Positions 570-37,738 of a stretch of 43,208 nt of DNA are shown here, piece after piece. Made by a program: the position numbers and the translations under genes. Where the stretch lies: contig CAMVRX010000002.1 of NCBI GenBank assembly GCA_947170005.1, positions 1 to 43,208 on the forward strand. The letters run 5' to 3'. Below the pieces are notes generated by a model. It was not told where the DNA came from. It saw only the letters and a program-made list of their open reading frames with translations, and did not search any database. Source of the stretch: an uncultured Elusimicrobium sp. GTDB lineage: Bacteria; Elusimicrobiota; Elusimicrobia; Elusimicrobiales; Elusimicrobiaceae. Every line of letters begins with the position of its first letter. Positions within the stretch are counted from its first letter, which is position 1.

Positions 570-1064
570 CTATTGTACAGTACACCAATTGGAACCACAA
601 ATTTTGTCACAAGCTCCGGTTTGCCTTGCTGAACACTGTATTTCTCTACGTGGTCCGCCCGAGGAAAGAAAGTAAGGATATTCACTTGGATCATCCGGAT
701 CAACTATCCGATATGCAAACACAGCTCCACCGTCAAAATCATAGACCCAATCTTTAGTGGTATAACATCCTGCTTCACTATCGCAGATATTTTGCTCCGC
801 CAGTGTACCGGGGATTTCTATGTCCATATGGGCAAATAGCCCATCTTCGTTATTGTTGCACTCGTCTGCTTCCGCCCCATACTGTATCCAGCACAACTCC
901 CAGGCTTTTTGCATACTGTTTAATACGAGTACCGCCTCGCGGGTGCGGGCTTTTTCCACCGCTTTTTGGTATTGCGGAACGGCTACCGCCGCCAATATAC
1001 CAATGATTAACACTACTACTAAGAGCTCTATTAACGTAAAGCCCCGTTTTACATTGAGTTTCAT
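570..1064 (-). CDS. Type IV pilin-like protein (pilin 1)
   Basis: Class III prepilin leader [40 protein letters not shown]; Cys-containing C-terminal domain; RBS aaggagaaagaac. Confidence 0.9.
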   Translation of the reverse strand: MKLNVKRGFTLIELLVVVLIIGILAAVAVPQYQKAVEKARTREAVLVLNSMQKAWELCWIQYGAEADECNNNEDGLFAHMDIEIPGTLAEQNICDSEAGCYTTKDWVYDFDGGAVFAYRIVDPDDPSEYPYFLSSGGPRREIQCSARQTGACDKICGSNWCTVQ

Positions 1065-1346
1065 GTTCTTTCTCCTTTATCGTCAGGTTTACACCTAACT
1101 ATATTTTCAATTTACCCGCTTATGAAACCCAAATAAAACGGCTCTTTTACTTGGGACATTCAGTACGCTCAAGCAAAACAGCCGTAGCTTATCACAACGT
1201 GATAAACACTCGGCACAAGAACGTGGGCTCATGACTTCCCGAGTTCTTGCGCCTCAAACAGCCGTTTTTGGTACTGAATGTGCTGCCAAAGCAGCGGTTC
1301 GTTTTGCAACGATTCCAAAAACAGATAAAATTGTATCTATAGTATA
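1065..1346 (-). ncRNA. Structured pilin leader element, copy E1
   Basis: Minus strand reads TATACTATAGATACAATTTTATCTGTTTTTGGAATCG...; long-range stem 1156-1166/1271-1281 (ACATTCAGTAC/GTACTGAATGT); GGCGCAAGAAC/GTTCTTGTGCC stem; hairpin TTATCACgttGTGATAA; AGCCGTTTT. Confidence 0.75.
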
Positions 1347-9296: not shown

Positions 9297-9560
9297 TATA
9301 CTATAGGTACAATTTCATCTGTTTTTGGAACCGTTTAAGAAACGGAGCGCTCATACAAGGGCACAATAGAAGTCCAAAGATAGCCGATTAGGTACAAAAT
9401 GACCGGAATAATTACCCGTTTGTTTTGTACCGAGTGTTTGTCGTCTAGCGATGAACCGCGGCTGGTATGTCTTGGGTTACTTCTATTGGCTCGGGCGTAG
9501 TAGCCGTTTTTGTTGGGTTTCATGAGCAGGGAATTGAACTGAATTAAAAGGAGAAAGAAC
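9297..9560 (+). ncRNA. Structured pilin leader element, copy E2
   Basis: TATACTATAGGTACAATTTCATCTGTTTTTGGAACCGTTTAAGAAACGG; stem 9364-9373/9479-9488 (CAATAGAAGT/ACTTCTATTG); GGTACAAAA/TTTTGTACC; AGCCGTTTT. Confidence 0.75.
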
Positions 9561-10058
9561 ATGAAACTCAATGTAAAACGGGGCTTTACGTTAATAGAGC
9601 TCTTAGTAGTAGTGTTAATCATTGGTATATTGGCGGCGGTAGCCGTTCCGCAATACCAAAAAGCGGTGGAAAAAGCCCGCACCCGCGAGGCGGTACTCGT
9701 ATTAAACAGTATGCAAAAAGCCTGGGCGTTGTGTTGGCTGCAGCATGGTACAGGAACGGATGAGTGCGGCAGGGGTGAGACAGGACTATTTTCCCGAATG
9801 GATATAGAGACGCCCGGTACGTTAGTAGAAGATGATTATTGTGAAAACGCGACAGGTTGCTACCTTACCAAGGACTGGGCCTATGACTTTGATGGCGGAG
9901 GCCTAAGCGCATATCGGGTTGTTGACCCGGAAGATGTAAGCAAAGTCCCTTATGCGCTTGTCGTGGGTGGCCCAGGAGATGTAGTGCGCTGTGGAACATA
10001 TGAAGACGAGGCAGCTTGTGACAAAATCTGCGGTTCCGATGGGTGTACTGTACAATAG
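9561..10058 (+). CDS. Type IV pilin-like protein (pilin 2)
   Basis: [18 protein letters not shown]...; identical to pilin 1 over the N-terminal ~55 aa. Confidence 0.9.
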   Translation: MKLNVKRGFTLIELLVVVLIIGILAAVAVPQYQKAVEKARTREAVLVLNSMQKAWALCWLQHGTGTDECGRGETGLFSRMDIETPGTLVEDDYCENATGCYLTKDWAYDFDGGGLSAYRVVDPEDVSKVPYALVVGGPGDVVRCGTYEDEAACDKICGSDGCTVQ

Positions 10059-12132: not shown

Positions 12133-12420
12133 TATACTATAGATACAATTTTATCTGTTTTTGGAACCGTTTAGGAAACGGAGAGCTCGTAAGAGCACTA
12201 ATTCACTCCAAAGGCAGCCAAATTAGGTACAAGGCAAACGGACTAATTACCCGGTTGTTTTGTGCCGAACGTTTCTCGCGCAAGCGGGAGATTACGGCTG
12301 TTGTAGTTGGGTGAGTGAATTAGGCTCGACTGTTACAGCCGTTTTTGCATGGTTCCGGGACGGGTGGATTGTAAATAAAACGTAGGTCAGGTGTAAATCT
12401 GACATAGTGAGGAGAAAAAA
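12133..12420 (+). ncRNA. Structured pilin leader element, copy E3
   Basis: TATACTATAGATACAATTTTATCTGTTTTTGGAACCGTTTAGGAAACGG; stem 12198-12208/12313-12323 (CTAATTCACTC/GAGTGAATTAG); GGTACAA 12226-12232/TTGTGCC 12260-12266; ACGGCTG 12294-12300; ACAGCCGT 12335-12342; GGTTCC. Confidence 0.8.
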
Positions 12421-12891
12421 ATGGAAACAAAAAATACCCGGCGGGGTTTTACGCTTATTGAGTTGTTAGTAGTGGTACTGATTATTGGTATCTTAGCGGC
12501 GGTAGCTGTGCCGCAATACCAAAAAGCAGTGGAAAAAAGCCATCGGGCGGAGGCAGTCGTTTTGTTGAACGCCATTTATAAAGGGTACCAGTTGTGTGTA
12601 CTCCAGTATGGGGAAGATGCAGAAGAATGTGGACATACAGAGTTAATTGAGAATATGGATATCGGTTTTCCAGTGGAACGTGCAGAAGAATGTGATATGA
12701 ATGTATGTTATGAAACGGATTACTGGATTTTTGATTCCGATGACAATCAATCTTGGTGGGCTGAACACCGCAAAAATCCTTCCTATATAATAGAGTTGGA
12801 TTTACTTAATGGGAAGGTGACTTGTGGTGAAAACGGATATCAAAACTCTTGCAATGCGGTTTGCGGGGCGGATGGATGTGAATTAAATTAA
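12421..12891 (+). CDS. Type IV pilin-like protein (pilin 3)
   Basis: [42 protein letters not shown]. Confidence 0.9.
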   Translation: METKNTRRGFTLIELLVVVLIIGILAAVAVPQYQKAVEKSHRAEAVVLLNAIYKGYQLCVLQYGEDAEECGHTELIENMDIGFPVERAEECDMNVCYETDYWIFDSDDNQSWWAEHRKNPSYIIELDLLNGKVTCGENGYQNSCNAVCGADGCELN

Positions 12892-16548: not shown

Positions 16549-17313
16549 TTAATCGTCGTTTTCATCATAGATGCTAAAATCTGTCCAGTCCCCTTGTGCA
16601 GCTAAAGACCGACAAATGGACTTGCCGAAGTCTGTGTTTCCCCAGCAGGCGCCGCTTGGGTGTGGTTCTATGATTCTATAATCATAGAATAATTGGTATT
16701 GCTGATTATTATTATCCTCATCATAATCTCCTGTACAAGTCCCACTGCAACGATCTACGATAACACCTGTAGCATCATCAAAGTTATAAAGAAAGTACTT
16801 AGTAAAGTAGTATTCTCCGATCCATGTTCCACCGCTTAAATCCGTTGTCCAATTTTCATGGTTGGTCCAATTTGAGGCGTCATCTGTTCCTTTTTCCAAC
16901 GCACTCAAATCTACATTTTTTTGAATCGTACTGATATTCATTAGAACTTCAGCCAAGCGGCTTTTCTCCACCGCTTTTTGGTATTGCGGTACGGCCACCG
17001 CCGCCAGGATACCAATGATCAGTACCACGACTAAAAGCTCAATAAGCGTAAAGCCGTGTGTCGTTTTCCTCGCCCCTGGAGGGAGAGGATGCCCGATAGG
17101 GCAGGTGAGGGGGGAGCCGTTGTAGGTCAGGCACTGCCTAACAATGTTCCGATAGGAATATCCGGTTGTTTGTTGCTGTTGACTAGCGTCCTTTTCCGCA
17201 AGGTAAGATATGCTGCAATTGGGAAGATGCCCCTTAGCCGGGGCATTGTCAGGCAATGCCTGACCTACCCGATTGATTTGCGTATGTCCCCGCCGGGTGT
17301 TTGTTGTTTCCAT
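16549..17313 (-). CDS. Type IV pilin-like protein (pilin 4) with ~87 aa expanded leader
   Basis: METTNTRRG then an inserted segment, then [34 protein letters not shown]. Confidence 0.8.
   Translation of the reverse strand: METTNTRRGHTQINRVGQALPDNAPAKGHLPNCSISYLAEKDASQQQQTTGYSYRNIVRQCLTYNGSPLTCPIGHPLPPGARKTTHGFTLIELLVVVLIIGILAAVAVPQYQKAVEKSRLAEVLMNISTIQKNVDLSALEKGTDDASNWTNHENWTTDLSGGTWIGEYYFTKYFLYNFDDATGVIVDRCSGTCTGDYDEDNNNQQYQLFYDYRIIEPHPSGACWGNTDFGKSICRSLAAQGDWTDFSIYDENDD
17122..17268. repeat. Palindromic-repeat insertion inside the pilin 4 leader
   Basis: 17122-17146 gtaggtcaggcactgcctaacaatg and 17244-17268 cattgtcaggcaatgcctgacctac are inverted copies; each half is itself near-palindromic. 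Confidence 0.8.
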
Positions 17314-17590
17314 GTTTTTCTCCTTTTTGGTTTATGTACAATTCACCCGTTCCGGAACCATGCAAAAACGGCTATTACCGTTTTGAGTAATGAACGCACC
17401 CAATACGCAACAGCCGTGTCTTATCATTCCTGATAAGCGCTCGGCACAAAATAACAAGCTCATGACTTCTTGTTATTTTATGCCTTAAACGACTGTTCTT
17501 GGCGTTCATTACTCTTTTAGTTCCCTAAAAGTGCACTACATACTTCTTATGTAGTTCCAAAAACAGATAAAAATTGTACCTACATTATAG
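17314..17590 (-). ncRNA. Structured pilin leader element, copy E4
   Basis: Minus strand TATAATGTAGGTACAATTTTTATCTGTTTTTGGAAC; 13-bp stem 17385-17397/17502-17514; GGCATAAAATAACAAG/CTTGTTATTTTGTGCC; CTTATCAggaaTGATAAG. Confidence 0.8.
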
Positions 17591-20760: not shown

Positions 20761-21285
20761 TTAATACACACTTTCCTCTTTTGTCCATCCTTGGCTTGAT
20801 AAAAGATTGCAAACATAATTGCCGATATCGGTGAAATGCGTATAGCATGATTTTTCTTCTGTGCCATTAGCATAGTGCGTAACATTCAAAGCGTATAGAT
20901 AATCGGTATCCTCACGGGCGCCTTGGTAGCGGTACAGGGTTACTCCATAATAACTGTCTGTTATGGCAGAGGAATAGTCAAAATATTTTGAATAAATAAG
21001 TGTCTCACCTTCATTGGTGGGATCCTCTTCCATAGTAACTCCTGTAATTTCTACATTGGCAATGTCTTGGTACTCTACATGGCTAACGTATCCGTTGGCA
21101 AGAACGTAGGCTTCCATTTCTCGCATCATAACCGGGATATTAACCAAGGCTTCAGTTAATCTCGATTTTTCCACGGCTTTTTGGTATTGCGGCACGGCTA
21201 CGGCGGCCAAAATACCGATAATTAAGACAACAACCAACAACTCAATGAGCGTAAACCCCCGCCGGGTGTTTTCTTTTGATTTCAT
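20761..21285 (-). CDS. Type IV pilin-like protein (pilin 5)
   Basis: [42 protein letters not shown]. Confidence 0.9.
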   Translation of the reverse strand: MKSKENTRRGFTLIELLVVVLIIGILAAVAVPQYQKAVEKSRLTEALVNIPVMMREMEAYVLANGYVSHVEYQDIANVEITGVTMEEDPTNEGETLIYSKYFDYSSAITDSYYGVTLYRYQGAREDTDYLYALNVTHYANGTEEKSCYTHFTDIGNYVCNLLSSQGWTKEESVY

Positions 21286-21565
21286 AAGCGTTTCTCCTTA
21301 ATTTTTGCCTGCTTATGAAACCCATAGAAAACGGCTCCTACAATGGGGACTCTAGCACGGGCCCACACCATAACAGCCGTAGCCTACCGTTTCTGCAAGC
21401 AGTAACGGTAAACATTGGGTACAGCATAGACGGTTTGCAACGGCCGTATATGTTGTACCTCAATCGGCTGCCTTTGGAGTGCTAGAGTATGGACCTTTGC
21501 CATCCCCCGTATTCTTCATACGGTTCCAAAAACAGAGCAAATTTTTATACTTCCTTTTTATTGTA
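21286..21565 (-). ncRNA. Structured pilin leader element, copy E5
   Basis: Stem 21349-21358/21479-21488 (ACTCTAGCAC/GTGCTAGAGT); GGTACAACATATACGG/CCGTCTATGCTGTACC; GGAACC/GGTTTC; AGCCGTTTT. Confidence 0.75.
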
Positions 21566-27546: not shown

Positions 27547-27819
27547 TATACTATCAGTACAATTTAATCTGTTTTTGGAACTGTACATTCGGTGTACGGT
27601 ACGCTTTTAGGAAACTAAAAGAGTAAAGCAATGCCAAAGACAGTCGTTTAAGGCATAAGATGGCGGACCTTCGAAACCCGCTGTCTTGTGCCGAGTGCTT
27701 ATTTACGTAAGCCACGGCTGTTGCGCGGTTGAGTGTATTGCTTTACTCAGGCGGTAATAGCCGTTTTTGCATGGTTCCGGGGCGGGTGAATTGAAAATTA
27801 AACCGTAAGGAGAACAAAA
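27547..27819 (+). ncRNA. Structured pilin leader element, copy E6
   Basis: TATACTATCAGTACAATTTAATCTGTTTTTGGAAC; 12-bp stem 27621-27632/27737-27748 (GAGTAAAGCAAT/ATTGCTTTACTC); GGCATAAGA/TCTTGTGCC; AGCCGTTTTTGCATGGTTCC. Confidence 0.8.
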
Positions 27820-28365
27820 ATGACATACAAAAACACCCGGCGGGGTTTTACGCTCATTGAGTTGTTAGTGGTTGTACTTATTATCGGTATTTTGGCGGCG
27901 GTAGCCGTTCCGCAATACCAAAAAGCCGTGGAAAAAGCGCGCACCGCGGAAGCAGTTTCCGTCATGGCTAGCATAATGCAAGCTATGGACGTATGGGTGC
28001 TTGAAAATGGTTACCCAGCAACAGGTAAAGCAGTCCAATTTTTTGGAAATGGAAACGTGACAAAGGGGGAACTGCTAGTCGACCTTGAAAGTGCGCTAGG
28101 ATGTACTTGGGGAGAAGGAGGCTGTGCTAGTAAATTTTTTACTTATTCAGCAGTATGCAGCAACGGTGGTTGTACTATTTCGGCTTCCCGGCAGATTAAC
28201 GGTAGTGAAATTTATTACCTGGACATGTTTAAAGACACAATCGGAACTTTGAAAAAACGGTGTTGGATGTCTCCGGATGAGCGCACGGCTCCTTGTTGTA
28301 GTTTGGCAGCGCAAGGTTGGATCGCTATGGATTCGGATGAAGGGGCGCCAATGGAGGGATGCTGA
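27820..28365 (+). CDS. Type IV pilin-like protein (pilin 6)
   Basis: [41 protein letters not shown]. Confidence 0.9.
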
Positions 28366-36950: not shown

Positions 36951-37472
36951 CTAAAAAACCCAGTAATTTTCTCCTTCCGGTTTTTGACCTCCGTATTTTA
37001 GGGCATCTTGTGTGGTATCATACAATACTCCACGGGGGGTCGAATCAAATGCATTTCCATTATACACAGCGATCATGGAGCCAGCATTATCGTACAATTC
37101 ATAGTTACAACAATTTCCTGTACGCCCTTCATCCGGAGCATCCAAACAATCATTGATATAAATATCCCAGTAGTTAGTATAGATATGCGCTCCGTCCTGC
37201 GAAATTGTCTCAAAACTAATGTCTAGGTCGTTTATGTTGCGTGTGCCACAATCATTATGAGAAAGGGCGTATACATCTTGCGCATCGGACAGGGCCTTTA
37301 TCAATGTTTTGGCTTCAGCCATTCGGCTTTTATTGACGGCTTTTTGGTACTGTGGCACGGCTACGGCTGCCAAAATACCAATAATCAGCACCACCACCAA
37401 AAGCTCTATTAAAGTAAAGCCTTTGGGAAGACAACTTTGCGTGAAACCCCGCCGGGTATTTCTCGTTTTCAT
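36951..37472 (-). CDS. Type IV pilin-like protein (pilin 7) with extended leader
   Basis: [50 protein letters not shown]. Confidence 0.88.
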   Translation of the reverse strand: MKTRNTRRGFTQSCLPKGFTLIELLVVVLIIGILAAVAVPQYQKAVNKSRMAEAKTLIKALSDAQDVYALSHNDCGTRNINDLDISFETISQDGAHIYTNYWDIYINDCLDAPDEGRTGNCCNYELYDNAGSMIAVYNGNAFDSTPRGVLYDTTQDALKYGGQKPEGENYWVF

Positions 37473-37738
37473 GTGTGTTCTCCTTATTTTTTATTGACCT
37501 GTTAAGGAACAATAAAACGGCTACAATATGCCAAGCCTTATCGCAGTCTTGTCACAAAATAGCCGTAATATCGCACGAAACGATACATTCGGCAAAAAAC
37601 ACGCTGGGAGCAACCCCTTTGTATTTTTTGCCTTAATGGGCCATTTTTGGACGCGATAAGGATCTGCTTGCGCAAACACTCCGTTTCTTAAACGGTTCCA
37701 AAAACAGAATCAAATTGTGGTCCTACATTTTCTATTCT
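37473..37738 (-). ncRNA. Structured pilin leader element, copy E7
   Basis: Minus strand TAGAATAGAAAATGTAGGACCACAATTTGATTCTGTTTTTGGAACCGTTTAAGAAACGG; stem 37536-37544/37653-37661 (CCTTATCGC/GCGATAAGG); GGCAAAAAA/TTTTTTGCC; AGCCGTTTT. Confidence 0.75.

What the first reader, a model, noticed from the sequence alone, without database searches (positions are those of the whole stretch)
12133..12420. Candidate novel structured leader RNA upstream of seven pilin genes
All seven pilin-like genes (E1 1065-1346 -, E2 9297-9560 +, E3 12133-12420 +, E4 17314-17590 -, E5 21286-21565 -, E6 27547-27819 +, E7 37473-37738 -) are preceded by a leader with the same layout: -10-like box, TACAATTTnATCTGTTTTTGGAAC, short hairpins, a long-range stem, a nested GGYRCAA/TTGTRCC arm, a variable hairpin, ACGGCTG, the 3' strand of the long-range stem, AGCCGTTTT, a GGTTCC-like closing strand, then the RBS. 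Placement between promoter and RBS suggests a cis-acting RNA. I do not recognise it as a riboswitch or RNA family I know.
Basis: partly seen in the sequence, partly recalled or inferred. Interest (0 to 1): 0.95.

Follow-up and report, generated by a model that had tools for sequence, protein, structure and literature searches.

The report
Pilin-gene leader RNA with two-state fold
A roughly 260-base RNA structure sits in front of more than 90 pilin genes in one gut Elusimicrobiota genome and, in related bacteria, in front of other mostly surface or DNA-modification genes; its sequence is built to flip between two folds that should block or allow expression, and a loop that is nearly always self-complementary suggests that copies may pair with each other, and it matches no described RNA family.

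Summary
All seven N-methyl pilin genes in the window have the leader. The same RNA occurs 91 times in this 73%-complete 1.07-Mb genome and up to 127 times in a sibling. It is confined to two families of Elusimicrobiota among the genomes searched, with no Rfam match. Covariation is strong.

I infer a six-strand, two-state expression switch. OFF: 5' strand a pairs b (P1), P5 forms with its U-run, and an anti-Shine-Dalgarno strand covers the ribosome-binding site. ON: a pairs the anti-SD strand, b captures the terminator's 5' arm, and the RBS is free. Each pairing was tested by covariation, strand swaps or shuffles; support is strongest for the pseudoknot, P3, P4 and the RBS hairpin, weaker for a:e.

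Unexpectedly, the P3 loop is self-complementary in 41 of 42 distinct loops, using 21 palindromes: a predicted kissing-loop homodimer. In relatives the leader also precedes glycosyltransferase, outer-membrane and DNA-methylase genes. The trigger is unknown; nothing has been tested experimentally.

The parts
12133..12420 (+). E3: the leader given in the finding, -10-like TATACT (12133-12138) to the base before the pilin ATG at 12421
12155..12164 (+). strand a, CTGTTTTTGG (5' strand of P1; alternative partner of strand e)
   Evidence: P1 pairs 9-10 bp with double changes in some relatives
12198..12208 (+). 5' strand of the pseudoknot / long-range stem, CTAATTCACTC
12208..12219 (+). strand b, CCAAAGGCAGCC: 3' strand of P1 and antiterminator strand
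12226..12266 (+). hairpin P3
12244..12249 (+). palindrome UAAUUA in the P3 apical loop (predicted kissing site)
12271..12292 (+). hairpin P4 (variable, covarying)
12294..12312 (+). strand c: 5' arm of the terminator-like hairpin P5; alternative partner of strand b
12313..12323 (+). 3' strand of the pseudoknot, in the P5 loop, GAGTGAATTAG
12324..12346 (+). strand d: 3' arm of P5 plus U-run (12342-12346)
   Evidence: at least 5 T of 8 in 99.6% of elements, hairpin -23.6 kcal/mol on average
12347..12373 (+). strand e: pairs with the 5' end (ON) or with the SD/start region (OFF)
   Evidence: the e:f pairing is weak in this copy (-6.1), strong in E2 (-17.2)
12410..12423 (+). strand f: Shine-Dalgarno AGGAG (12410-12414) and ATG
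12421..12891 (+). pilin-like gene after E3
   Evidence: PF07963 E=2.2e-9
1065..1346 (-). E1 leader; pilin gene 570-1064 (-)
9297..9560 (+). E2 leader; pilin gene 9561-10058 (+)
17314..17590 (-). E4 leader; pilin gene 16549-17313 (-)
21286..21565 (-). E5 leader; pilin gene 20761-21285 (-)
27547..27819 (+). E6 leader; pilin gene 27820-28365 (+)
37473..37738 (-). E7 leader; pilin gene 36951-37472 (-)

Best explanation
It is a new family of cis-acting leader RNA, about 210 nt to the end of the U-run plus about 50 nt to the start codon, that works as a two-state expression switch. OFF: strand a (CUGUUUUUGG) pairs strand b (CCAAAAACAG; P1), strand c pairs d to make the terminator-like hairpin P5 with its U-run, the P5 loop pairs the strand before b (pseudoknot), and strand e (anti-SD) pairs f (SD and start codon). 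Transcription stops early, or translation is blocked in messages that read through. ON: a pairs e, b pairs c (CAGCCG with CGGCUG plus the long-range stem), so there is no P5 and the RBS is open. Shown computationally: conservation, covariation or complementarity of these pairings, and that the two folds exclude each other. Inferred: that they switch in the cell, that P5 terminates transcription, and that P3 dimerises. What triggers the switch is unknown.
For: 91 copies in the genome at E<=1.2e-12. RNAalifold: 36 pairs, 30 with compensatory changes. My own R-scape-style test: 37 pairs at E<=0.05, 12 under a stricter rate-weighted null, covering pseudoknot, P3 and P4; H1 and P5 pairs appear only under the looser null. 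Pseudoknot: own duplex -17.3 against -7.7 kcal/mol for swapped partners, AUC 0.98. P1: double changes, e.g. L083 CUAUAUUUGA with UCAAAUAUAG. Antiterminator b:c: its CC varies almost only C/U opposite G, 233/237 and 235/237 paired; 93.3% of cells paired, 0/500 shuffles. P5 tail: at least 5 T of 8 in 99.6% of 232. Anti-SD with SD/start: -10.9 against -7.2 swapped, p=1.6e-24. Strand a with the region after the U-run: beats shuffles, p=4e-34, AUC 0.74. Predicted energies of the two folds are close: -97.2 and -99.1 on average; free MFEs show a:b with c:d in 110 of 216, a:e with b:c in 61, never a:b with b:c. Second family: a:e p=3e-6, anti-SD p=9e-4 against shuffles.
Against: No experiment, RNA-seq or 5'-end map. 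The a:e pairing covaries weakly: own against swapped p=0.10 for strand e alone, 2e-4 for the whole region after the U-run. In the second family the anti-SD pairing beats shuffles but not swapped partners (p=0.17, n=16). The anti-SD pairing is weak in E3 itself. P5 and the pseudoknot can coexist, so a single pseudoknotted fold without switching is not excluded. Energies ignore the pseudoknot and tertiary contacts, and similar energies for two folds of one sequence are partly expected because they share helices. P1 and the antiterminator vary little. No ligand or trans-acting factor is known.
Confidence: 0.68

Rival explanations
1. A riboswitch of an undescribed class: P3, P4 and the pseudoknot form an aptamer for a small molecule (c-di-GMP is an obvious candidate, given pilins and other surface genes), which sets the same two-state platform.
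For: Same platform evidence as the main model; GGDEF proteins in all 8 genomes searched; c-di-GMP riboswitches control adhesion genes elsewhere (PMC6366702, found, title and start of abstract only).
Against: No match to any Rfam riboswitch. No invariant unpaired pocket stood out on reading the alignment; the most variable part, the P3 loop, is constrained to be palindromic rather than to one sequence. Downstream genes vary, including DNA methylases and a SNF2 helicase.
Confidence: 0.35
2. Homotypic RNA control: leaders, including terminated ones, dimerise by kissing P3 loops, and dimerisation shifts the switch, so copies with the same palindrome sense or regulate each other.
For: 41 of 42 distinct P3 loops carry a palindrome of 4 nt or more (shuffled mean 16, maximum 27) and 30 of 42 one of 6 nt or more (mean 2.8, maximum 9), with 21 different palindromes; P4 and H1 loops do not. 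The common 9-nt loops have 2 nt before and 1 nt after the hexamer, a geometry like the HIV-1 dimerisation site (palindromic kissing: PMC7357161; the 2+1 spacing is from memory).
Against: Several loops are AU-rich with weak predicted self-pairing (UAAUUA -0.4, UUAUAA -0.6 kcal/mol). Genomes with a single copy exist, so only self-pairing would be possible there. No link from P3 pairing to the switch is shown.
Confidence: 0.4
3. Leader-peptide attenuation: ribosome position on a short upstream ORF chooses between terminator and antiterminator.
For: The terminator/antiterminator layout is the same as in amino-acid operon leaders (general knowledge).
Against: SD-preceded upstream ORFs are rarer than in shuffled leaders (26% against 39%; ATG only 9% against 16%).
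Confidence: 0.04
4. A DNA-level repeat (promoter, recombination or cassette site) whose palindromes and inverted repeats act as DNA.
For: Copies are very numerous and lie upstream of a variable gene family; palindromes of varied sequence are also expected of DNA sites.
Against: Helices are conserved by compensatory changes while the sequence diverges (56% mean pairwise identity); the anti-SD strand follows each gene's own SD/start sequence; the element is consistently oriented towards a gene.
Confidence: 0.06

Closest known systems
c-di-GMP riboswitches (GEMM-I and GEMM-II)
   Same: Cis-acting leaders that can sit before adhesion and pilin genes and act on termination or the RBS (general knowledge; PMC6366702).
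   Different: No Rfam match; here about 260 nt, five-plus hairpins, a palindromic loop, and 91-127 copies per genome in the largest cases.
Transcription-attenuation leaders (terminator/antiterminator)
   Same: One strand (ACGGCUG) can pair with an upstream or a downstream partner, the latter followed by a U-run.
   Different: No leader peptide; combined with a second exchange at the RBS and a pseudoknot.
HIV-1 dimerisation initiation site and other palindromic kissing loops (PMC7357161)
   Same: Self-complementary loop at a hairpin tip, often a hexamer.
   Different: Here the palindrome differs between copies and the RNA is a bacterial mRNA leader; dimerisation not shown.
Guanidine-II riboswitch
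   Same: Bacterial leader with self-complementary kissing loops (PMC7357161).
   Different: There the loops are a fixed ACGR; here they vary in sequence and only P3 has one.
OLE, ROOL and GOLLD RNAs (PMC12286853)
   Same: Natural bacterial RNAs reported as homo-oligomers.
   Different: Those are larger and, from memory, not mRNA leaders of this kind; no Rfam match here.

Membership tests
Any Rfam 15 family | covariance-model score at or above the gathering cut-off | tested here: not met
   (whole window, 0 matches); E-value searches of two window leaders and seven loci gave only sub-cut-off hits, the low-E ones lying in L059 at 1039-1207, outside the leader
c-di-GMP riboswitch | GEMM-I/GEMM-II sequence and structure | tested here: not met
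   no Rfam match
c-di-GMP riboswitch | binds c-di-GMP | not testable with these tools
   needs in-line probing or ITC; GGDEF genes are present
Guanidine-II riboswitch | two hairpins with ACGR loops | tested here: not met
   P3 loops vary widely; no Rfam match
Terminator/antiterminator attenuator | stable hairpin followed by a U-run | tested here: met
Terminator/antiterminator attenuator | a conserved upstream strand that can capture the terminator's 5' arm | tested here: met
Terminator/antiterminator attenuator | termination in the cell that is regulated | not testable with these tools
   needs Term-seq or in vitro transcription
Peptide-coding attenuator | conserved leader ORF | tested here: not met
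RBS-occluding translational switch | anti-SD strand complementary to each gene's own SD/start region | tested here: met
   (p=1.6e-24 against swapped partners, family f1); family f10 only against shuffles
Palindromic kissing-loop dimer | self-complementary apical loop | tested here: met
Palindromic kissing-loop dimer | dimer in solution | not testable with these tools
   needs native gel, SEC-MALS or cryo-EM

The most novel reading that the evidence does not exclude
A self-recognising leader RNA: more than 90 pilin leaders in one cell, sorted by the palindrome in their P3 loop, pair homotypically with their own or same-type transcripts (including prematurely terminated ones) and so set the terminator/RBS switch, giving an RNA-only, density-like or mutually limiting control over a very large pilin repertoire.
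Probability: 0.25. Interest if true: 0.94.

Novelty: new variant of a known kind. Interest (0 to 1): 0.86.

Why it matters
No described RNA family covers it, yet it is widespread in Elusimicrobiaceae and present in a second family of the phylum, with up to 127 copies in one 1.7-Mb genome. From general knowledge that is far beyond usual copy numbers of bacterial cis-regulatory RNAs (not surveyed here). If the switch is real, one RNA architecture controls a large pilin repertoire and, in relatives, mostly envelope and DNA-modification genes, in gut bacteria whose biology is poorly known. The palindromic P3 loop makes RNA homodimerisation in an mRNA leader directly testable.

Tried and rejected
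Leader-peptide attenuation: upstream ORFs are depleted. Outer stem TACAATTT with AAATTG as a universal helix: only weak support, AUC 0.56, so not claimed as a family feature. First ON/OFF energy run was discarded because the hard constraint removed those bases from all pairing; redone with penalties. Beyond Elusimicrobiota: pattern hits in Pedobacter, Flavobacteriaceae, Saprospiraceae, Piscirickettsiaceae, Spirochaetota, an Oscillospiraceae and an alphaproteobacterial MAG gave no strong match to the model (L214 and L196 reached only E=0.01-0.05), so they are treated as chance. Eight viral contigs matched the loose pattern and were not tested with the model. MAFFT X-INS-i/Q-INS-i were not usable. 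One count of P3/P4/P5 pairs failed on string length and was not repeated, since one search gives those pairs. A full-length covariance model was not attempted because of the calibration limit; the model used (R1, 142 positions) starts at strand b.

Full report
Observation. Each of the seven leaders ends one base before the start codon of an N_methyl pilin ORF, and those are the only PF07963 matches listed in the window. The leaders align end to end; the conserved 24-mer occurs five times at <=3 mismatches with none expected. E3 folds at z=-7.5. Rfam: nothing at gathering score in the window, and no convincing match in permissive searches of single leaders and loci.

Extent. A pattern search found 58 copies in the genome, and a covariance model of the core (R1, 52 elements) found 91 at E<=1.2e-12. 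At least 146 N_methyl genes are present in this 1.07-Mb, 73%-complete assembly (150 candidates scored), so dozens lack the leader. Of 87 own copies with enough sequence, 86 are followed by a pilin. Uncapped, G055 has 127, G101 48, G058 45. A second family of the phylum (f10) has 1-22 per genome; the same-order family f2 and the other sampled genomes of the phylum had none. Named genome hits with strong model scores, among the loci checked, are Elusimicrobiota or unclassified gut MAGs.

Downstream genes. In this genome: pilins, with one assessable exception (L119). In G058, G055 and G101, 27 of 30 checked copies precede pilins. Across relatives 77 of 135 distinct elements precede pilins; the rest include glycosyltransferases GT2/8/9, RgpF-like, pyruvyl transferase, sulfatases, outer-membrane barrels, BamE-like, TRL, YrbL, EcoRI methylase, N6_N4 methylase, HSDR_N, SNF2 helicase, a bPH_2 protein and TPR.

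Structure. RNAalifold on 52 cores: P3, P4 and P5, 36 pairs, 30 with compensatory changes. A G-test with APC and a tree-based null, written here in the style of R-scape (not R-scape itself), gave 37 significant pairs with a uniform null, 29 of them at least 60% standard pairs, and 12 with a rate-weighted null. They include six (strict) to eight consecutive pairs between the strand before CCAAAA and the P5 loop. Own-partner duplex energies there are -17.3 against -7.7 kcal/mol for swapped partners. Because P5's arms also covary (own -21.2, swapped -16.1), the two together make a pseudoknot.

Mutually exclusive pairings. P1 (CUGUUUUUGG with CCAAAAACAG) is nearly invariant but shows double changes (L083 and L074). 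ACGGCUG can pair downstream (P5, then U-run) or upstream with CAGCCG, whose CC changes almost only to U opposite G; a separate count gave 93.3% paired cells, 0/500 shuffles as high. After the U-run, 24 nt complement each gene's own SD and start codon, for example GTTTCATAAG with CTTATGAAAC. The same stretch complements the 5' strand better than shuffles do, though only weakly better than swapped partners. Both features recur in f10 against shuffles; there the anti-SD does not beat swaps. These give two self-consistent states: a:b, c:d, e:f (OFF) and a:e, b:c (ON). Their predicted energies are close (means -99.1 and -97.2) and free MFEs fall into one or the other, never mixing a:b with b:c. Caveat: near-equal energies are partly expected because the folds share P3, P4 and side hairpins, and the pseudoknot is not counted.

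Palindromic loop. The P3 apical loop carries a palindrome of at least 4 nt in 96% of 237 elements. Counting distinct loops of 6 nt or more once, 41 of 42 do, against a shuffled mean of 16 and maximum of 27; 30 of 42 have 6 nt or more, against a maximum of 9. P4 and H1 loops do not. Adjacent central bases cannot pair within one loop, so the simplest reading is pairing between two molecules, as in palindromic kissing loops reviewed in PMC7357161. Weak self-pairing of the AU-rich types is a point against.

5' end. A TATACT box lies upstream of E3, but TACAATTT contains TACAAT, itself -10-like, and some relatives have an extra hairpin there. The start of transcription is therefore open.

Function. 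Best supported: a leader that decides between early termination plus RBS occlusion and expression. Shown: the pairings, to the degrees above. Inferred: switching, termination, dimerisation. Unknown: the trigger. Searches of the held literature found no description of such a leader in Elusimicrobiota; the library is open-access only, and the E. minutum genome paper was not read.

Noticed in passing
window 16549-17313 and 36951-37472; 42 of 83 leader-bearing pilin genes in the genome: Repeat-derived stretches put 18-107 codons between the start codon and FTLIELL (other genes have at most 14), often interrupting an original RRGFT; recurring peptides such as VGQALPDNAPAKGHL and SPLEGEG look like translated repeats.
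   Followed up: partly
whole genome G000: At least 146 N_methyl pilin genes in 1.07 Mb; dozens have no leader.
   Followed up: partly
L119 (G000:C23) and L074, L080, L127: A leader copy in several species precedes a similar small ORF of about 60-73 codons; L074 and L127 have no Pfam match.
   Followed up: partly
L292 (G197:C15): Two tandem diverged leader copies before a gene resembling EcoRI methylase by sequence start.
   Followed up: no
L060, L065, L067, L071, L081 upstream of the leader: A small hairpin, AAGCCTT-AACG-GGCTT, just before TACAATTT in several relatives.
   Followed up: no
window 12386-12403: An extra short hairpin GTCAGGTGTAAATCTGAC between strand e and the SD of E3; E1 has a similar one.
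   Followed up: no
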